NCBI GenBank assembly: GCA_001898645.1
Contig: MKUQ01000025.1
Coordinates: forward strand, 1 to 64,000
Length of the DNA stretch: 64,000 bases
Direction: 5' to 3'
DNA from: Burkholderiales bacterium 70-64
GTDB lineage: Bacteria; Pseudomonadota; Gammaproteobacteria; Burkholderiales; Burkholderiaceae_E
The notes under the pieces are model-generated. The model was not told the DNA's origin. It made no database searches and was given only the letters and a program-made list of their open reading frames with translations. This document shows positions 4,129 to 16,999 of this stretch, piece after piece. Within the stretch, counting starts at the first letter, position 1. Each line of letters starts with the position of its first letter. The translations under genes and the position numbers were made by a program.

Positions 4129-5763
4129 TCAGCCAGCGAGGTCCAGCGTGCCCCCCTTCGCGTCGCGCACCAGCACGGTGGGAAAGCCCACCGGCAGGGT
4201 CAGCGGGAAATCACGGCTGTAGTGCAGGCCGCGGCTCTCGCGGCGGCGCAGGGCCGATTCGACGATCAGCCCGGCGCAATCGACCAGGTTGCGCAGCTCG
4301 AGCAGGTCGCGGCTGACGCGGAAGTTGGCGTAGTAGTCGTCGATCTCCGCCTCGAGCAGGCGGATGCGGTGCAGCGCGCGTTCGAGCCGCCGCGTCGTGC
4401 GCACGATGCCGACGTAGTTCCACATCAGCAGGCGGAGCTCGTCCCAGTTGTGCGCGATCACCACCTGCTCGTCGGCGTTCTCGACCTGGCTCTCGTCCCA
4501 CGGCGGCAGCGCGGCCGCGTGCGTGAATCCGCGCACGTGCTGCAGCACGTCGGCCGCGCAGGAGCGGCCGAGCACCACGCATTCGAGCAGCGAGTTGCTG
4601 GCCAGCCGGTTGGCGCCGTGCAGCCCGGTGTAGGCGGCTTCGCCCACCGCATACAGGCCCGGCAGGTCGGTGCGGCCCGCGAGGTCGGTGACCACGCCGC
4701 CGCAGGTGTAGTGCGCCGCCGGCACGACCGGGATCGGCGTGCGCGCGATGTCGATGCCCAGCGCCAGGCAGCGCGCATGGATGGTCGGGAAGTGCGCCTT
4801 CAGGAACGTCTCGCCCAGGTGGGTGGCGTCGAGCAGCACGTAGTCGAGCCCGAGCCGCTTCATCTCGAAGTCGATGGCGCGCGCGACCACGTCGCGCGGC
4901 GCCAGTTCGAGCCGCTCGTCGTGCGCCTGCATGAAGCGCGTGCCGTCGGGCAGCTTCAGCTGCGCGCCCTCGCCGCGCATCGCCTCGGTAATCAGGAAGC
5001 TGCGCTCCTGCGGGTGGTACAGGCAGGTCGGATGGAACTGGATGAACTCCATGTTGCCGACGCGGCAGCCGGCGCGCCACGCCATGGCCACGCCGTCGCC
5101 GGTGGCGGTGTCGGGATTGCTGGTGTAGCGGTAGACCTTGCCCACCCCACCGGTGGCCAGCACCACTGCTGCCGCGGGCAGCGTCTCGACCCGCTGGTGA
5201 TCGATGTCGAGCGCGTAGACGCCGTAGCAGCGCGGCGCCTCGTCGCGCTGCAGGTGGCGCGTGGTGACCACGTCGACGGCCATCCAGCGTTCGCGCAGGG
5301 CGATGCGCGGGTGGCGCCGCGCCCGCTCGAGCAACGCCGCGTGGATCGCCTTGCCGGTGGCGTCGGCCGCGTGTGCGATGCGCCGCACCGCATGGCCGCC
5401 TTCGCGCGTCAGGTGCAGGCCGAGCGGCCCCGCCGGATCGGGCGAGAAGGCCACGCCGCGCTCGACCAACCACTCGATGGCCTGGCCGCTGCGCTCGGCG
5501 ATGAAGCGCGCCGCCGCCTCGTCGACCAGCCCGCCGCCGGCGTCGCGGGTGTCGCGCACGTGACTGTCCACGCTGTCGTCGCTGCCCAGCACGCCGACGA
5601 TGCCGCCCTGCGCCCAGGCGGTGGCGGCCTCTTCCAAGTCGCGCTTGGCCAGGACCACCACCGGCCGGTGGTCAGCTAACTCGAGCGCGACGGCGAGCCC
5701 CCCGAGGCCGGCCCCGACGACGACCACGGGCAGTGCGGCGGGTTCGGGGGAGGTGGGAGTCAT
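4129..5763 (-). CDS. nadB: L-aspartate oxidase NadB
   Basis: NadB is the FAD enzyme that oxidises L-aspartate to iminoaspartate for quinolinate synthesis. The 544-residue protein has the N-terminal dinucleotide motif VVGAGLGGLAVALELA (about residues 15-30) and the family motifs WAQGGI, REGGHAVRRIAHAADATG, EFIQFHPTCLY, AHYTCGGV and GLYAVGEAAYTGLHGANRLASNSL. These are the FAD and dicarboxylate contacts of the aspartate oxidase/fumarate reductase family. The helical C-terminal domain is complete. It converges on nadA-nadC rather than sharing their operon and starts about 150 bases from the divergent toxin-antitoxin pair. Confidence 0.95.
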   Translation of the reverse strand: MTPTSPEPAALPVVVVGAGLGGLAVALELADHRPVVVLAKRDLEEAATAWAQGGIVGVLGSDDSVDSHVRDTRDAGGGLVDEAAARFIAERSGQAIEWLVERGVAFSPDPAGPLGLHLTREGGHAVRRIAHAADATGKAIHAALLERARRHPRIALRERWMAVDVVTTRHLQRDEAPRCYGVYALDIDHQRVETLPAAAVVLATGGVGKVYRYTSNPDTATGDGVAMAWRAGCRVGNMEFIQFHPTCLYHPQERSFLITEAMRGEGAQLKLPDGTRFMQAHDERLELAPRDVVARAIDFEMKRLGLDYVLLDATHLGETFLKAHFPTIHARCLALGIDIARTPIPVVPAAHYTCGGVVTDLAGRTDLPGLYAVGEAAYTGLHGANRLASNSLLECVVLGRSCAADVLQHVRGFTHAAALPPWDESQVENADEQVVIAHNWDELRLLMWNYVGIVRTTRRLERALHRIRLLEAEIDDYYANFRVSRDLLELRNLVDCAGLIVESALRRRESRGLHYSRDFPLTLPVGFPTVLVRDAKGGTLDLAG

Positions 5764-5876
5764 GGCGGAGGGCAGAAGCGTCGCATTCTACCGACGTCGA
5801 ACTGTGACCGGCTGTAGGGGGCGAGCATCGATCACGTACCCCCCGCGGCTGGACACCATACCGAATTCTAATGATA

Positions 5877-5902
5877 ATGGTCATATCGATCATTATGACC
5901 AT
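5877..5902. promoter_or_regulatory. dyad operator upstream of toxin-antitoxin operon
   Basis: The arms ATGGTCATA (5877-5885) and TATGACCAT (5894-5902) form a perfect 9-bp dyad with an 8-base spacer, ending 9 bases before the antitoxin ATG. The region is strikingly AT-rich against its surroundings and probably also holds the promoter. Phd/YefM antitoxins bind such palindromes and autorepress their operon, so this is the expected operator. The binding itself is inferred. Confidence 0.7.
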
Positions 5903-5911
5903 CTAAACACC

Positions 5912-6184
5912 ATGATCACCGAAGTCAGTGCCGTGAACTTCCGGCAGAACTTGGGCGAGATGCTCAACCAGGTGCAGTACCGCAACGACAGCATCGTCAT
6001 CAACAAGGATGGAAAGCCGGTAGCTGCTCTGGTGGATGCCGAACTGTTCGCCCGCATCCGGCGCATGCGGGAGCGCTTCGACCAGCTGAGCAATCGGATT
6101 GCCCAAGCGTATTCTGATCTGTCGGTCGAGGAAGGTCTGGCCGAGATCGACGCGGCGGTGGCGGCCGAGCGCAAGCCACGCTGA
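5912..6184 (+). CDS. type II antitoxin, Phd/YefM family
   Basis: The 90-residue protein starts MITEVSAVNFRQNLGEMLNQV, the Phd/YefM DNA-binding fold, and continues IVINKDGKPVAALVDAELFARI, the strand-turn-strand of that family. The acidic/helical C-terminal half (about residues 50-90) is where these antitoxins wrap and block their toxin. The ATG at 5912 is chosen because it directly follows the dyad operator and gives a full-length family member; longer upstream readings cross the operator. Its TGA overlaps the toxin ATG by one base (TGATG), which couples their translation. Confidence 0.88.
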   Translation: MITEVSAVNFRQNLGEMLNQVQYRNDSIVINKDGKPVAALVDAELFARIRRMRERFDQLSNRIAQAYSDLSVEEGLAEIDAAVAAERKPR

Positions 6185-6597
6185 TGCTGGGATTGCGCGT
6201 TGTGCTCGATACCAACGTGTTGGTATCGGGCCTGGCCTACCCGGGTAGCGTGCCGGGCCGTATCGTCACCGCCTGGCGCCAAGGCAGCCTGGAGGTGGTG
6301 TTGTCGCGCTACATCCTGGACGAATTGGTCAGGGTGTTGCCCCGCTTGCCGCGGATTCGCATGACGCCCGCGGAAATCCGCGACCTGGCCGACAGCTTCA
6401 TGTTTCTGGCCGATGTCGTCGAGCCCGAGGGCACGCAGGATGCGACCCTGCGCGACCCTGCCGACCAGCCCGTGTTGCTCACGCTTTCGGCGGCGAAGGC
6501 CGACTATCTGATCACCGGCGACAAGGACTTGCTGGCGCTGGCGAATCAGTACCCCATCCTCACCCCCTCAGAGTTCTGGGCACGCCACGGGGCCTGA
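6184..6597 (+). CDS. PIN-domain toxin (putative endoribonuclease)
   Basis: This 137-residue single PIN domain begins VVLDTNVLVSGLA and matches the chromosomal 'putative toxin-antitoxin system toxin component, PIN family'. The acidic metal ligands visible are Asp9 (LDTN), Glu47 (LDELVRVL), Asp94 (DPADQPVL) and Asp113/Asp115 (TGDKDLL). PIN toxins are Mg-dependent RNases that cut RNA when the antitoxin is degraded; the target here is unknown. The start overlaps the antitoxin stop by one base. All catalytic residues are intact, so the toxin should be active. Confidence 0.88.
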   Translation: MLGLRVVLDTNVLVSGLAYPGSVPGRIVTAWRQGSLEVVLSRYILDELVRVLPRLPRIRMTPAEIRDLADSFMFLADVVEPEGTQDATLRDPADQPVLLTLSAAKADYLITGDKDLLALANQYPILTPSEFWARHGA

Positions 6598-6632
6598 TTC
6601 GCTGGTCGCGACGACACCCGCGCTCCGCCGCT

Positions 6633-7856
6633 TCAGGCCACCAGCTCGACCTTCAGCTCGTCGACCACCCTGAAGCGCGAACGGTCGGGGCGCACCGTCG
6701 GGCCGGCGCGGCGGATGCGCGGGAAGCGCTCGATCAGCTTGGCGAAGGCGACCTGAGCCTCCATGCGCGCCACCGCGTTGCCGGCGCAGAAATGGATGCC
6801 GTGGCCGAAGGCCACGTGCTTGTTCGGCTCGCGGGCGACGTCGAAGACGTCGGGATGGTCGAACTGGCGCGGATCGCGGTTGGCCGCGGCGATGGCGAGG
6901 TGGAAGAACGTGCCCGCCGGCACCGTCTCGCCCTGGATCGCGACCTCGACGGTCGGGCGCCGGTTGCCGATCTGCAGCGGGCTCTCGAAGCGCAGCATCT
7001 CCTCGACCGCGGGCTTGAGCAGCGAACGGTCTTGCCTGAGCCGCTCGAGCTGCTCCGGGAAGCGCAGCAGCAGGTCCATGCCGTTGGAGATGAGGCTAGT
7101 GGTGGTGTCGTGCCCGGCGTTGAGCAGGAAGATGGAGTTGTGGATGATCTCCAGCTCGGTGAGGCCGCCGCCGGCGTCGGCCGACTGGATCAGCGCCCAC
7201 AGGATGTCGGTCTCGGCGTTGCGCGAGGGATGGGCGCGCTTGCGGGCGATGAGCTCGCCCAGGTAGGCCTTGAATTCCTCCACGGCGCGGTTGCCGGCGG
7301 CCAGCTGCTCGGGCGTGCGCACCGGCTCGAGGCCGCCGAGGATGAGGCCGGCCCAGGTGCGCAGTGGCTCGCGCTCGCCCCGGGGCACGCCGAGCAGGTC
7401 GCCCACCAGGTTGAGCGGGATCGCCAGGGCGAACTCGCTCATGATGTCGATGACGCGTTTCTCGGCGGCCACGTCGAGCAGCTCGTCGACCATGCGCGCC
7501 ACGCCCTGCTCCATCTGGCGCAGCGTCTGCACGGCGAAGAACGGCTGCAGCAGCTTGCGCACCCGCGTGTGGTAGGGCGGGTCGTTGAACACCAGCGAGG
7601 TGGTGTGGTGCTCGTAGAGCGGGCTGTCGCCGAACTTCGGCTTGAAGTCGACCCGCTTGTCGGAGGAAAAGCGCGCCGCGTCGGTGAGCGCCGTGCGCAC
7701 GTCGTCGTAGCGGGTGAGCAGGATCGAGCCGTCGGGCTGGCGGCACAGCGGCGCGTGCTCGCGCAGCACGGCGAAGTCGGGGTAGGGGTCCTGCGCGAAT
7801 TCGTGGCCGACGCGCGAGAGCACGAACTGGCTGGCGGTATCGGGGGTCAGGCGCAT
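6633..7856 (-). CDS. cytochrome P450
   Basis: This is a 407-residue soluble bacterial P450 (class I type, needing separate redox partners). The haem-binding loop FGHGIHFCAGN puts the axial thiolate at Cys357. The I-helix has AGHDTTT for O2 activation, and the K-helix ExxR is in EEMLRFESP. No ferredoxin or ferredoxin reductase is adjacent, and the gene stands alone, divergent from the small envelope protein at 8066. The substrate cannot be inferred. Its upstream region carries a copy of a dispersed GTCGGNGTNGAATCGAGCC motif. Confidence 0.93.
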   Translation of the reverse strand: MRLTPDTASQFVLSRVGHEFAQDPYPDFAVLREHAPLCRQPDGSILLTRYDDVRTALTDAARFSSDKRVDFKPKFGDSPLYEHHTTSLVFNDPPYHTRVRKLLQPFFAVQTLRQMEQGVARMVDELLDVAAEKRVIDIMSEFALAIPLNLVGDLLGVPRGEREPLRTWAGLILGGLEPVRTPEQLAAGNRAVEEFKAYLGELIARKRAHPSRNAETDILWALIQSADAGGGLTELEIIHNSIFLLNAGHDTTTSLISNGMDLLLRFPEQLERLRQDRSLLKPAVEEMLRFESPLQIGNRRPTVEVAIQGETVPAGTFFHLAIAAANRDPRQFDHPDVFDVAREPNKHVAFGHGIHFCAGNAVARMEAQVAFAKLIERFPRIRRAGPTVRPDRSRFRVVDELKVELVA

Positions 7857-13833: not shown

Positions 13834-13926
13834 TCAGGCGAAGTACGGAGCGTGGCCGAGCTTATGGACCAGGTCGCCGGCGTTGGCAAGCGCCTTGGCG
13901 ATGAGCGGCGGCAGTGCTGCTGTCAT
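13834..13926 (-). CDS. 30-codon ORF coupled to the RNA ligase gene (truncated fourth gene?)
   Basis: An ATG overlaps the RNA ligase stop in the same ATGA arrangement that joins the ligase to the PIN gene. It opens MTAALPPLIAKALANAGDL and ends HKLGHAPYFA at a TGA. The composition looks like real helical protein rather than noise. It may be a genuine small protein, or the 5' stump of a longer fourth gene lost by deletion; the next 140 bases show no continuation that I can recognise. No function can be assigned. Confidence 0.4.
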   Translation of the reverse strand: MTAALPPLIAKALANAGDLVHKLGHAPYFA

Positions 13927-14627
13927 TGTTCCACCTGGAGTCCAGCCCAGCGTACCTGGTTCCACTCCAGCTTGCGGCTGCGCCAATGCGTGTCGATCTG
14001 AGTGAAGTCTGCACGCACCAATTTGCCGCGGGTCAGCAGCCAGTCATCGTTTTCGCGACGCACTACCACACCTTCCAGTGCACCGTCGCGGAAGCGGCTG
14101 TGCTCCGCGGCGACCAATTGCTTGAGTGAAGCCACGGTCTGTTTCCCTTCGGCCAAGCGCGGAACCGTTGCCAAGTTCAGTGTTTTCGCCAGCGCATCGC
14201 GGCGGCGAGTGCTCCAGAACTTTCGCTCGCGGCGGTCGTATACGTCGAACAGCAACCACCAGTCCGGCAACGCCGGATAGTCCAGCGAGTGCCGCACAGC
14301 GCACCATTCTCCGAAGGCGATGCGATGGTCGCTCAGCGCTGCGGCAAGACCATCTTTATGCAGCGCCATCCATTCGGGCAGGCGCTGGAACTGCCCTGCG
14401 TAGGGCTCGGTCAGGTACTGGCCGCGGTTCTGGGCACGCAAGCGACTGTCCGTGCCGATCGAAAAGCCGAGGTTGGCACCGTCCAACTTCTCTTCCACCA
14501 CGACCGGACCGTCCAGCAACGCCCGCACCTCGGCGAGTGAGAGCACCTTGTCGTCGCGTGGCGTGCCTTCGCCCAGCCAGGCGATATGGTGGGTATGGGG
14601 AAAGCGAAAGAAGTCAGCGCTGCTCAT
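13923..14627 (-). CDS. ATP-dependent RNA ligase (nucleotidyltransferase superfamily)
   Basis: This 234-residue protein is a compact covalent nucleotidyltransferase of the RNA ligase/capping superfamily. The motifs in order are: motif I EEKLDG with the adenylated Lys47; a motif Ia-like QNRGQY; motif III FGEWCAV (Glu107); motif IIIa LLFDVYD (126-131); motif IV LEGVVVR (Glu185); motif V RGKLVRADF (Lys202, Arg205). Known relatives seal nicked or broken RNA in repair. There is no clear OB-fold or large C-terminal domain, so this is near a minimal catalytic module. Its start overlaps the PIN gene stop by four bases (ATGA), making it the third gene of a coupled ATPase-PIN-ligase operon. Confidence 0.85.
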   Translation of the reverse strand: MSSADFFRFPHTHHIAWLGEGTPRDDKVLSLAEVRALLDGPVVVEEKLDGANLGFSIGTDSRLRAQNRGQYLTEPYAGQFQRLPEWMALHKDGLAAALSDHRIAFGEWCAVRHSLDYPALPDWWLLFDVYDRRERKFWSTRRRDALAKTLNLATVPRLAEGKQTVASLKQLVAAEHSRFRDGALEGVVVRRENDDWLLTRGKLVRADFTQIDTHWRSRKLEWNQVRWAGLQVEQ

Positions 14628-15157
14628 GCGTCCGGGAGGGTTGGTTCAGGATGTTTCGGAAATTTCCTCTGATAGAACGTGCGCGCGTCGTTCGGGCAAA
14701 GGAACTTCACCATTACGCCATGGGCGCGTAGCGCCTGCCACCAATCCAACCACTTGCAGTCTGCTGCCTGCCATATCTCCGGCTTCTCGGCATGGGCGTG
14801 GGCCACCGCAGCAAACATCCGATCGGACGCGTCGAACTTTGATTCGAGTCCGGGATCCGGAAATTCGGCGTAATGGTACTCGGCTTGCTCAGTGAGGCTC
14901 ACCAGTTCGACACGCCGACCGCCGGTCGCTTCGCGCAACAACCATTTGAGGAACACATCGCCGACGCCCTTAGGCGGCTTTAACCGGGTCTTGTGCTGGT
15001 ACTCGCCAAGGATGCGAAAGCCATCGTCGATAACGACGATACCGGATCTCTGCATCGCCCGCAGCCCATCCACGCAGGCATCCACGCAATCGGGGGAGAC
15101 GTCATCATGTCGACCATTGGCAACCAGCAGGACATTGGTATCGATTACGGCCCTCAC
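14624..15157 (-). CDS. PIN-like endonuclease of the ATPase-ligase operon
   Basis: The 177-residue protein begins MRAVIDTNVLLVANG, the first strand of a PIN domain. Candidate metal ligands are Asp6, Glu52 (ILGEYQ), Asp109/Asp112 (FDASDRMFAAVA) and Asp133 (ADCKWLDWW), so the active site looks complete. The GTG at 15157 is chosen because it overlaps the ATPase stop in GTGA and gives the PIN fold its proper first residue. PIN enzymes are mostly RNases. The adjacent RNA ligase suggests that RNA, possibly tRNA, is the substrate; that is inference. The base composition is lower in GC than the flanks. Confidence 0.8.
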   Translation of the reverse strand: MRAVIDTNVLLVANGRHDDVSPDCVDACVDGLRAMQRSGIVVIDDGFRILGEYQHKTRLKPPKGVGDVFLKWLLREATGGRRVELVSLTEQAEYHYAEFPDPGLESKFDASDRMFAAVAHAHAEKPEIWQAADCKWLDWWQALRAHGVMVKFLCPNDARTFYQRKFPKHPEPTLPDA

Positions 15158-16545
15158 GATTTCGATTCCTGCGACAACCCCCGCTTGCGCTGCATGGCTG
15201 CTTTCGTACGTGCGGCGATATCTTCCATCTCGTCGCCAAAGAAATTGACCGGCCAGTTCTCGATCTCGCCGAATGTGTTCAGTCGCAGCGGTTCCAGTTC
15301 CGTGCCAGAGCGTGTGTTCCTGCAGAAGTAAACCGCAACGTCTTTCGAGGAAACCAAACACTCGGCCACGCGACGCTGCAGGCGATTGAGGAAGTGCTCC
15401 GAGTGGCTCTCCACAATCAATTGGACATGCCGTGCCCGGCCGCTCTCACGTGACTGGATGGCGGAGATGAAGACATCCGCGAGCGCCGATTGAACTTGCG
15501 GATGGAGGTGAATTTCCGGCTGCTCCATCCACACCGTGGAGTCGGGGGGGCAATAGAAGGCCTGAACAAGCGCGGGCAACACCTGTGAGATACCAAAACC
15601 CACATCGGTGATCTTCACTTCCGGCGCATGAGTATGCGTACGCACCAGCACTTCGTACTCTTTACGGCCCTTGGCGACAGGACGAACCGAGAAGTCTTGG
15701 ATGACACCCAGATCCTTCAACCAGGCCGCAATGAACGGCATGAACTCATGAGTGGCCTTCTTCGGACCACGATTCATCTTGCGCCCCTCGGCCTGCGCCG
15801 CGAGGAGGGCGGCAATGGCGTACTCCCCCATCTGTCCTACGCTCGAAGGTGTATCGCCGGACCATTGATAGATCCGCTCGGGCGGCTTGCGCAAAGGCCC
15901 AAGGTACGAAAGGCTCGCTAGCATCGACTCGGTCGCCAGCGCGAAATCGGTCATGAACCCAGCATTCTTGAAACGGGCCATGCTGATGTCCGACAGTCGA
16001 TAGAACTTTTCTGGCTCTTCCAGCGGCCATTTCCTGCCGTCGGCCATCTTGAAGTCATAGTGCTTCGAGCTGAGTTTGAGCCTGCGTTGAGCATCGCGCT
16101 CCAGCGTGACATCGAGTACGTCGTCGCTGTTCTGGCGCAACAGGTACTGCATGCGTGCGACTTCCGGCTGACCGGCCTTGCCTGCAGCAAGGCGCACGTC
16201 CAAGCGCATACCATCGCCTTCGTAGCGCCGGGTGGTCAATGGGTCGAGCACGTTCAGTGTGCCCGAAAGCTCCCAGCCCAGCTCAAACTCGAGTGCGGAC
16301 TGGAGGTCGTGCCCATGGAGGCAGTCGGAGAAGGTTCCAAGGTCAATGAGCGTGGTGCTGTCGCCCAGATGCAGGGCTCGTCGGCGATCCGTTGATTGCG
16401 CTGTCTGCTGCAAAGCCAGCAACAAGTGCCCCAGGCTGCTCTTGCCGGCGCTGTTGGCACCGAAAATGACGGTCAAAGGAGCCAGGCGGATGGGGCCGGT
16501 GTCTTTCCAGGCCTTGAAGTTTCGGATTCGCAGGTGTGTGAGCAT
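15154..16545 (-). CDS. OLD-like AAA ATPase with DUF3696-type C-terminus
   Basis: This 463-residue ABC-class ATPase is of the kind seen in anti-phage systems. Walker A is GANSAGKS (29-36). The signature-like DVGFGISQ is at 314-321. The Walker B region is VWMEQPEIHLHP, with Glu341 and Glu344, and the H-loop is VESHSEH (378-384). The C-terminal stretch LNTFGEIENWPVNFFGDEMEDI matches the DUF3696 pattern. There is no TOPRIM nuclease domain as in OLD, so the nuclease role presumably falls to the PIN protein encoded next. The ATG at 16545 has no strong ribosome site. It heads a three- or four-gene overlapped operon of lower GC than its flanks. Confidence 0.87.
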   Translation of the reverse strand: MLTHLRIRNFKAWKDTGPIRLAPLTVIFGANSAGKSSLGHLLLALQQTAQSTDRRRALHLGDSTTLIDLGTFSDCLHGHDLQSALEFELGWELSGTLNVLDPLTTRRYEGDGMRLDVRLAAGKAGQPEVARMQYLLRQNSDDVLDVTLERDAQRRLKLSSKHYDFKMADGRKWPLEEPEKFYRLSDISMARFKNAGFMTDFALATESMLASLSYLGPLRKPPERIYQWSGDTPSSVGQMGEYAIAALLAAQAEGRKMNRGPKKATHEFMPFIAAWLKDLGVIQDFSVRPVAKGRKEYEVLVRTHTHAPEVKITDVGFGISQVLPALVQAFYCPPDSTVWMEQPEIHLHPQVQSALADVFISAIQSRESGRARHVQLIVESHSEHFLNRLQRRVAECLVSSKDVAVYFCRNTRSGTELEPLRLNTFGEIENWPVNFFGDEMEDIAARTKAAMQRKRGLSQESKS

Positions 16546-16651: not shown

Positions 16652-16999
16652 TATATGCGCCTTGGCTCCACGACGCTGTTTTCGGCGCTCGACATCGCCA
16701 CGTGCGAGGTCATCTGGCAATTGCGCCGGCGCCGTCGCGCCAGCGGGTTCCTCGCGTCACGCCGACTTTGACCTCCTGGCCGAGCCAAGTCGAGCGCTGG
16801 TTCGCCACGCTCACCGACAAATACATCCGGCGCGGCGCGCATCGCTCCATGCGCTAACTCGAGCAGACAATCCGCCATTATCTGTCTGGACGCACATAAC
16901 GCTGACCCAAAGCCGCCGTTCGTCTGGACCAAATCTGCCGATGACATCCTTATGAGCATCCAGAATTCTTGTATGAGAATTTCAATCTCACGATCCTAG
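16652..16999 (+). pseudogene. decayed IS630-family transposase remnant
   Basis: Fragments of an IS630-type transposase can be read across frames. YMRLGSTTLFSALDIATCEVIWQ is followed by a large internal deletion. Then come TPTLTSWPSQVERWFATLTDKYIRRGAHRSMR, a stop where the next residue should be, LEQTIRHYLSG, a frameshift, and PFVWTKSADDILMSIQNS to a TAG. The phrases QVERWFA, DKxIRRG and FVWTKSADDIL are typical of the family's C-terminal part. Stops, shifts and the deletion make it nonfunctional. It abuts the accessory ATPase-PIN-ligase operon, consistent with that operon's arrival by transfer. Confidence 0.8.

What the first reader, a model, noticed from the sequence alone, without database searches (positions are those of the whole stretch)
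13834..16545. Overlapped ATPase - PIN nuclease - RNA ligase operon: candidate undescribed defence or RNA damage/repair system
Three genes are joined by four-base overlaps (GTGA, ATGA) and a fourth short ORF by another ATGA. They encode an OLD-like AAA ATPase with DUF3696-type C-terminus, a PIN-like nuclease with intact acidic residues, and a minimal ATP-dependent RNA ligase with motifs I-V intact. ATPase-nuclease pairs are common in anti-phage systems (OLD/Gabija/PARIS/Septu-like logic). Adding an RNA ligase to the same transcript is not a combination I know. One model is regulated cleavage of RNA (perhaps tRNA) on infection, with the ligase restoring the cut RNA when the threat is not lethal. 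Another is that the ligase counters phage tRNA-repair products. The lower GC and adjacent IS630 remnant support horizontal arrival.
Basis: partly seen in the sequence, partly recalled or inferred. Interest (0 to 1): 0.87.

Follow-up and report, generated by a model that had tools for sequence, protein, structure and literature searches.

The report
Portable RNA ligase in defence operons
Three overlapping genes encode a probable infection-sensing ATPase, an RNA-cutting enzyme and an enzyme that could rejoin cut RNA, and the rejoining gene appears to have been passed between different bacterial defence systems, which hints at defences that carry their own antidote.

Summary
On the minus strand an AAA_15/DUF3696 ATPase, a PIN-fold nuclease and an RNA_ligase (PF09414) overlap by 4 bases. 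ATPase and PIN match PADLOC's candidate defence system HEC-03, so that pair is already catalogued; no PADLOC model hits the ligase.

The ligase is a conserved partner. A PIN gene lies just upstream in 74 of the 80 best ligase relatives, and 60 of 80 also show the ATPase. Starting from the PIN, 17 of 22 genomes have the ligase adjacent. PIN-linked ligases form one clade, apart from ligases paired with the end-healing enzyme HD-Pnk; full HD-Pnk is found in 0 of 30 genomes with the PIN-type ligase. The ligase behaves as a cassette: ligases 76-84% identical sit behind PINs of 21-26% identity, with DNA similarity rising at the ligase start codon. Single copies follow PD-T4-4, PDC-S46 and an MqsRA-SecB module.

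Most likely the ligase reseals RNA cut by the system's own nuclease, as an RNA-level antidote. No activity was tested.

The parts
15154..16545 (-). AAA_15/DUF3696 (OLD-type ABC) ATPase, 463 aa; HEC-03B
   Evidence: Pfam AAA_15 7.2e-21, DUF3696 8.3e-9; PADLOC HEC-03B 2.6e-125
14624..15157 (-). PIN-fold nuclease, 177 aa, GTG start overlapping the ATPase stop (GTGA); HEC-03A
   Evidence: PADLOC HEC-03A 5.1e-24; AF2 pLDDT 95.7, pTM 0.91; weak fold matches headed by PIN proteins; acidic residues conserved in relatives
13923..14627 (-). minimal ATP-dependent RNA ligase, 234 aa, start overlapping the PIN stop (ATGA)
   Evidence: Pfam RNA_ligase 2.1e-32; AF2 pLDDT 88.9; Foldseek best hits Naegleria RNA ligase, then archaeal RNA ligases and T4 Rnl2; catalytic residues kept in 101 of 101 relatives
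13834..13926 (-). 30-codon ORF overlapping the ligase stop (ATGA); probably not part of the system
   Evidence: no significant relative outside copies of the same locus among the loci fetched by then

Best explanation
An HEC-03-type defence operon with a built-in RNA ligase. Inferred mechanism: the DUF3696 ATPase holds or activates the PIN nuclease and releases it on an infection cue; the PIN nuclease makes a metal-dependent cut in an RNA, perhaps tRNA or rRNA, leaving 5'-phosphate and 3'-hydroxyl ends; the ligase reseals those ends, so that leaky or sub-lethal cutting is reversed and the cell can recover. The ligase would thus act as an RNA-level antidote, not as a protein that binds the nuclease. 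Shown here: the operon, its conservation, intact active-site residues, absence of full HD-Pnk in the genomes tested, and exchange of the ligase as a cassette between two PIN-ATPase lineages. Inferred: the trigger, the RNA target, the end chemistry, the resealing and any phage protection.
For: PIN immediately upstream of the ligase in 74 of 80 relatives; 60 of 80 also show the ATPase, some of these cut by contig ends or split (L041, L083, L091). With start codons chosen by my script, the PIN-to-ligase gap is within -25 to +43 bases in 74 of 74, with the 4-base overlap in 20. PIN-first sampling: 17 of 22 genomes have the ligase adjacent; with the PADLOC model alone, which is not built from ligase-linked PINs, 7 of 10. 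ATPase and PIN are HEC-03B and HEC-03A. Catalytic residues kept; in 10 of 11 close pairs every computable dN/dS is 0.04 to 0.31, the exception being L085/L094 at very low divergence. The sister ligase clade goes with HD-Pnk, while a full HD-Pnk match is found in 0 of 30 genomes with the PIN-type ligase, as expected if the ends need no healing. Ligases 76-84% identical serve PINs of 21-26% identity, which fits a ligase acting on RNA rather than on its protein partner. Eleven of 80 loci show PIN plus ligase and no ATPase hit (upstream ORFs looked at in six of them). Three ligases of this clade follow other defence or toxin modules in genomes with no PIN of this family. Four fetched trios lie on plasmids typed conjugative or mobilizable, a fifth on one typed non-mobilizable; AbiE-like and GASH genes flank it on the Aeromonas plasmids.
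Against: No activity has been measured. End chemistry is disputed: PMC6459853 (passage) says VapC-family toxins leave 5'-hydroxyl ends, which this kind of ligase could not join without a kinase. The ligase is not obligatory: 4 of 22 PIN-bearing genomes lack it nearby, and the fetched Acinetobacter soli plasmid has an HNH gene in its place. One ligase stands alone among housekeeping genes (L062). The 17-of-22 count leans towards ligase-linked PINs, because the profile used was built from PINs found through the ligase. The 6 HD-Pnk control genomes were chosen because their ligase has HD-Pnk beside it, so they show only that the search works. One of 30 genomes carries a full bacterial Pnkp (G448); only HD-Pnk and bacterial Pnkp were searched, other kinases were not excluded. 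Neighbourhood enrichment for defence genes is weak. Within the close ATPase lineage the ligase does track the PIN (rho 0.75), so exchange is seen mainly between lineages and within the divergent one. The other-partner contexts are single cases.
Confidence: 0.5

Rival explanations
1. Cut-and-join RNA processing: PIN and ligase together process, splice or circularise a specific RNA, as proposed for HARP with Rnl3, and resealing is the product rather than an antidote.
For: HARP-Rnl3 is a published pairing of a PIN-superfamily nuclease with an RNA ligase (PMC12153264); two-gene PIN-ligase loci without an ATPase hit exist, some beside housekeeping genes, and ten ligase rows of this kind form one clade (one of the ten, L059, is cut at a contig end).
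Against: The PIN goes with a defence-type ATPase in 60 of 80 loci, four fetched trios sit on conjugative or mobilizable plasmids, and the ligase also follows PD-T4-4, PDC-S46 and MqsRA-SecB, which are not known as processing enzymes. Patchy distribution: 11 of 299 sampled genomes of the phylum have an adjacent PIN-ligase pair.
Confidence: 0.15
2. End-blocking: the ligase adenylates or misjoins the cut ends so that phage repair enzymes cannot restore the RNA, making damage permanent.
For: The ligase is little more than a nucleotidyltransferase domain (234 aa); a paper read here cites an archaeal Rnl3 with strong adenylation but weak ligation activity (PMC12153264).
Against: The ten motif residues checked are kept in 101 of 101, and relatives share a conserved C-terminal tail (F208, H214, W215, N223 invariant in the 41-row alignment). 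No direct evidence for blocking.
Confidence: 0.12
3. Hitch-hiking repair gene: the ligase repairs RNA cut by foreign ribotoxins or phage and is linked to PIN genes only because both are mobile defence cargo.
For: A solitary ligase exists (L062), the ligase has been exchanged between two PIN-ATPase lineages, and four genomes with this ligase have no PIN of the family.
Against: Immediate placement after the PIN in 74 of 80 loci, often overlapping; metal-independent ribotoxins leave 5'-hydroxyl and cyclic-phosphate ends (PMC4411300, section 3) that need end healing, and full HD-Pnk was found in 0 of 30 genomes, full Pnkp in 1 of 30.
Confidence: 0.13
4. DNA system: the PIN nuclease nicks DNA and the ligase seals DNA nicks, as a self-limiting restriction module.
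For: Some OLD-type ATPase partners are DNA nucleases (recalled); the ligase fold is shared with DNA ligases, which appear lower in the fold list.
Against: The best fold matches and the Pfam hit of the ligase are RNA ligases, and named PIN matches such as VapC20 and Nob1 are RNases.
Confidence: 0.06

Closest known systems
HEC-03 (Hma-embedded candidate 03, PADLOC-DB 2.0.0)
   Same: The ATPase matches HEC-03B (2.6e-125) and the adjacent PIN matches HEC-03A (5.1e-24).
   Different: No PADLOC model hits the ligase. By eye the genes flanking the window operon are not Hma genes. The fetched plasmid copy next to helicase and methylase genes has an HNH gene where the ligase would be, and its ATPase is annotated in two pieces.
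OLD-ABC ATPase with PIN endoRNase in BREX-linked systems (PMC12839542, passages seen)
   Same: Same kind of ATPase-nuclease pairing, discussed there among auxiliary and backup effectors.
   Different: The word ligase does not occur in that paper's held main text.
HARP-Rnl3 (protein-only RNase P homologue with RNA ligase; PMC12153264, parts 1-2 of 3 read)
   Same: A PIN-superfamily nuclease linked to an ATP-dependent RNA ligase.
   Different: PIN_5 found in 0 of 36 genomes searched and not among the families hit by the 47 PIN members; the ligase scores 18.8 bits against a cut-off of 136.9 for TIGR01209; that paper reports no ATPase partner in the parts read and mostly divergent gene orientation, here co-directional.
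RNA ligase plus HD-Pnk repair pair (the name HD-Pnk is recalled)
   Same: Sister group of the ligase in the trees, which are midpoint-rooted.
   Different: The six found are open frames of 307-347 aa beside an HD plus P-loop kinase gene; full HD-Pnk is in 0 of 30 genomes with the ligase type studied here.
[quoted passage not shown]
   Same: Rnl sealing of RNA cut by a ribotoxin.
   Different: Works with Pnkp and Hen1; full bacterial Pnkp is over cut-off in 1 of 30 genomes here. There the toxin is foreign; here the nuclease is in the same operon.
PARIS (AriA-AriB)
   Same: ATPase of the same broad class with a separate nuclease; an AriA model hits the ATPase at 5.9e-23.
   Different: AriB is a Toprim nuclease (PMC12409363, title and passages); here a PIN; HEC-03B scores far higher.

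Membership tests
HEC-03 | ATPase matching HEC-03B | tested here: met
   2.6e-125 over residues 1-454
HEC-03 | adjacent PIN matching HEC-03A | tested here: met
   5.1e-24 over residues 3-158; 4-base overlap with the ATPase gene
HEC-03 | anti-phage activity | not testable with these tools
   the passages seen say that several HECs are active, naming HEC-06; HEC-03 is not named there (PMC12988326)
HARP-Rnl3 | PIN_5 (PF08745) nuclease | tested here: not met
   0 of 36 genomes, with 4 of 14 control genomes ringing; PIN_5 not among the 19 families hit by the 47 PIN members
HARP-Rnl3 | ligase over the TIGR01209 cut-off | tested here: not met
   18.8 bits against 136.9
RNA ligase plus HD-Pnk repair pair | HD-Pnk gene in the genome | tested here: not met
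   no match in the window's own genome; full match in 0 of 30 genomes with this ligase type and in 6 of 6 control genomes; 10 of the 30 have weak partial matches of 19.5 to 53.2 bits
Pnkp-Rnl-Hen1 repair | bacterial Pnkp over cut-off | tested here: not met
   window's own genome: one fragment of 18.3 bits against a cut-off of 750; 1 of 30 genomes over cut-off, G448; Hen1 not searched
VapBC toxin-antitoxin | small VapB-type antitoxin gene next to the PIN | tested here: not met
   the PIN overlaps the ATPase on one side and the ligase on the other
PARIS | AriB Toprim/DUF4435 nuclease partner | tested here: not met
   the partner matches only HEC-03A in PADLOC at E up to 1
RNA_ligase PF09414 | catalytic lysine and nucleotidyltransferase motifs | tested here: met
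   2.1e-32; E45, K47, D49, G50, R68, E107, D128, E185, G186 and K202 kept in 101 of 101 relatives

The most novel reading that the evidence does not exclude
A clade of minimal RNA ligases is a general, exchangeable antidote module for defence nucleases: it reseals RNA cut by the cell's own immune effector, serves several unrelated systems (two HEC-03 lineages, PD-T4-4, PDC-S46, MqsRA-SecB), and can stand with a PIN nuclease alone as a two-gene toxin and RNA-repair antitoxin. This would be a class of antitoxin that acts on the damage rather than on the toxin.
Probability: 0.33. Interest if true: 0.92.

Novelty: new variant of a known kind. Interest (0 to 1): 0.76.

Why it matters
Abortive-type defences are usually seen as one-way. 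A self-encoded ligase would make an RNA-cutting defence reversible and could explain how cells tolerate leaky effectors. It also turns an open question, which ends PIN effectors leave and whether hosts repair their own immune damage, into a direct test, because the genomic pattern (ligase without HD-Pnk) predicts 5'-phosphate and 3'-hydroxyl ends.

Tried and rejected
Rejected: the 30-codon ORF as a fourth component; HARP identity of the PIN; Rnl3 identity of the ligase; a phage origin of this ligase: of 26 viral loci one is close (65%, L114, ligase at the very start of its contig, so its upstream gene is unknown) and the other 25 are 23-30% identical; of 37 phage records the 20 listed are 26-30% identical. 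Presence in complete E. coli genomes: the Lelliottia copy, as DNA, found no match.

Inconclusive: defence-island enrichment. 140 of 342 neighbouring ORFs from 44 loci matched 50 PADLOC families at 1e-30 (25 shown, among them HEC-05 in 2 members, an Argonaute-type, a type I specificity, a PDC-S02 and an RtcR model in 1 each), against 9 families for 140 of 152 ORFs from 20 arbitrary stretches (mad3 in 3 members, Cas12-type models and Csx1 in 2). Families are not genes, my gene caller keeps spurious ORFs, and ORFs over 700 aa were dropped before sampling. A Pfam scan of the same 140 neighbours gave mostly ordinary families, with GmrSD_N in 2 members. RNA families near the operon: none at E up to 1. 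Promoter and terminator scans: not above shuffles. The PIN profile found no PIN in the PDB by sequence.

Bias to note: the 80 loci are the best of 501 ligase relatives, so ligase identity is range-restricted, and the low ligase correlation is partly a sampling effect. The 8 pairs were picked by me from the 25 discordant pairs listed, and some share near-identical loci (L074 and L077), so they are not 8 independent events. Rows dropped: before the tree, duplicate loci of one place and hits under 40 bits, near-identical rows, the viral and contig-edge rows without partner, and L155; one search used the 74 of 101 loci examined whose three genes passed length and score limits.
Full report
What is there. 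The minus strand of the window carries an ATPase (16545-15154), a PIN-fold nuclease (15157-14624) and an RNA ligase (14627-13923), joined by GTGA and ATGA overlaps. Pfam gives AAA_15 and DUF3696 for the ATPase and RNA_ligase PF09414 for the ligase; the PIN is below Pfam cut-offs. GC is 0.599 against 0.728 in 5 kb on each side. The fourth ORF has no significant relatives.

The pair is catalogued, the ligase is not. PADLOC assigns the ATPase to HEC-03B and the PIN to HEC-03A; no PADLOC model hits the ligase. HEC stands for Hma-embedded candidate; several HECs, including HEC-06, were reported active, and HEC-03 is not named in the passages I saw (PMC12988326). A 2026 BREX paper reports OLD-type ABC ATPases paired with PIN endoRNases and its held main text does not contain the word ligase (PMC12839542, passages). 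My ten literature searches returned no paper whose listing or inspected passages describe this trio; the library is open-access only, and two papers that I wanted were not held.

Structures. The PIN model has pLDDT 95.7. No Foldseek match reaches 0.001, but the head of the list holds PIN proteins: PAE0151, AF1683, VapC20 and Nob1 (that the first two are PIN proteins is recalled). The ligase model (88.9) matches Naegleria RNA ligase at 7e-8, then archaeal ligases and T4 Rnl2.

Conservation of the linkage. Of these 80: 60 have a PIN and an ATPase hit upstream, a few of them cut by contig ends or split (L041, L083, L091); 11 have PIN and ligase without an ATPase hit (L061, L069, L073, L075, L078, L079, L080, L086, L098, L099, L101; upstream ORFs looked at in L061, L069, L079, L086, L099, L101); 3 have the PIN with the upstream cut off (L042, L059, L089); 2 are cut off before the PIN (L058, L092); 4 have other contexts (L049, L062, L106, L108). 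With start codons chosen by my script the gap between PIN stop and ligase start was within -25 to +43 bases in 74 of 74, with a 4-base overlap in 20. Starting from the ligase, 15 of 300 genomes of the order have a hit: 6 are of the HD-Pnk type and 9 of the window's type, 8 of these 9 with the PIN adjacent and G096 split over contigs. A class sample gave 5 of 274: two with the PIN adjacent besides the window's own genome, one HD-Pnk type and one truncated ligase without PIN (G302). Starting from the PIN, 10 of 300 genomes of the order (PADLOC model) and 14 of 299 of the phylum (my profile, built from ligase-linked PINs and so biased towards them) have it, 22 genomes in all: 17 have the ligase adjacent, 4 do not (G013, G133, G315, G375) and G096 is split; with the PADLOC model alone it is 7 of 10. 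In the phylum of a verrucomicrobial locus 4 of 145 genomes have a ligase hit, 3 of them with the trio and the fourth (G858) a distant ligase without PIN in the stretch read; in the phylum of the Pelotalea locus 3 of 148, all with the trio, one ATPase (L234) split in two frames. Both counts include the genome that served as centre, chosen because it has the trio. A Rhodococcus plasmid carries the trio too. Among plasmids, 12 records have the PIN and 9 of those 12 also have a close ligase; I opened six regions, five trios and one without ligase.

Two kinds of ligase, two kinds of partner. In a FastTree tree of 136 ligases the PIN-linked ones fall in one clade of 103 rows (support 96), which includes 8 rows without a visible PIN; 8 of 9 HD-Pnk-linked ligases form another (98), and the ninth, L155, is on a very long branch. 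An IQ-TREE quick tree of 91 rows puts all 7 retained HD-Pnk ligases on one side of a branch at 100. Roots are midpoints. Genome-wide, a full HD-Pnk match (474-886 bits) occurs in 6 of 6 control genomes, chosen because their ligase has it, and in 0 of 30 genomes whose ligase is PIN-linked or of that clade; 10 of those 30 have weak partial matches of 19.5-53.2 bits. Full bacterial Pnkp is over cut-off in 1 of the 30 (G448), with fragments below cut-off in most others. Classical ATP-dependent RNA ligases need 5'-phosphate and 3'-hydroxyl ends (established knowledge), and two-metal PIN nucleases are expected to leave them (recalled). Against this, PMC6459853 states that VapC-family toxins leave 5'-hydroxyl ends (passage). 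The genomic pattern favours phosphate ends for this PIN, and it is testable.

The ligase is a cassette. Among 74 trios, PIN and ATPase distances correlate (rho 0.86), PIN and ligase hardly (0.10), ATPase and ligase 0.16. Ligase identity is the same within and between the two ATPase lineages (0.598 and 0.597), while PIN falls from 0.53 to 0.25 and ATPase from 0.58 to 0.34. Within the close lineage (44 loci) PIN and ligase do correlate (0.75), within the divergent one (30) weakly (0.18). On the ligase tree the divergent-ATPase label needs 21 changes against 23.3 for shuffled labels, 4 or 5 of them forced by strongly supported branches. In 8 chosen discordant pairs (ligases 77-84% identical, PINs 21-26%) DNA identity is 0.37-0.52 in the 60 bases before the ligase start and 0.73-0.87 in the first 60 bases after it. 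The window's own ligase groups with one copy from each lineage, L034 and L035.

Other partners. L049: the ligase follows PD-T4-4 A and B (7e-203, 2e-93). L106: it follows PDC-S46, an AAA_13 protein (1.2e-212). L108: it follows MqsR, MqsA and SecB-like genes beside what look by eye like type I methylase and specificity genes. Each is a single case, and a search found no PIN of this family in any of these genomes. L062 is a lone ligase whose genome also gave no PIN.

Function is under selection. Ligase catalytic residues are kept in 101 of 101; PIN D6 in 90 of 94 (3 gaps, 1 glycine), E52 in 93 of 94 (1 gap), D109 and D112 in 94 of 94, D133 in 89 of 94 with E in 5. In 10 of 11 close pairs every computable dN/dS lies between 0.04 and 0.31; the pair L085/L094 gives 0.29 to 0.91 at very low divergence.

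Mechanism. I commit to an ATPase-gated PIN ribonuclease whose RNA damage is resealed by the co-encoded ligase, at about 0.5. The exchangeability of the ligase argues that it recognises RNA ends rather than a protein partner. The closest published parallel that I found is HARP with Rnl3, where a toxin-antitoxin reading was raised and judged unlikely for one archaeon (PMC12153264, parts 1-2 of 3); membership in that pair was tested and not met.

Noticed in passing
L061, L069, L073, L075, L078, L079, L080, L098, L101 (PIN-ligase pairs near 5400-6700): A two-gene PIN-ligase unit with no ATPase hit, in Aquabacterium-type Burkholderiales; where looked at by eye it lies beside general-secretion (ExeA/GspB-like; L061, L101) or other housekeeping genes (L069, L079). 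It may be a domesticated or toxin-antitoxin-like form.
   Followed up: partly
L032:7992-9284: On an Acinetobacter soli plasmid the PIN is followed by an HNH gene instead of the ligase, next to helicase and methylase genes; by eye an HNH-like gene also lies downstream of the ligase in L049 (8084-8914).
   Followed up: no
L202:9362-9739: A truncated ligase (126 aa, C-terminal part) without a PIN in the stretch, next to an HNH-like gene (by eye): a decaying copy.
   Followed up: no
L076:5465-5998: The PIN of Candidatus Accumulibacter regalis reads IGTN where relatives have the DTN motif, so its first catalytic Asp appears lost although ATPase, PIN and ligase are all present.
   Followed up: no
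window 16755-16960: By eye an IS630-type transposase C-terminus broken by stops on the plus strand; Pfam gave no hit to the short pieces scanned.
   Followed up: partly
L028:9361-15479 and L033:9542-15660: A metallophosphoesterase, a GTPase-associated GASH gene and hypothetical genes downstream of the trio on Aeromonas conjugative plasmids, with AbiE-like genes upstream.
   Followed up: no
L232:5457-6227: A distant RNA ligase (82 bits) in a genome of the verrucomicrobial sample, without PIN or HD-Pnk in the 12-kb stretch, near a metallophosphoesterase-like gene (by eye): possibly a third kind of partner.
   Followed up: no
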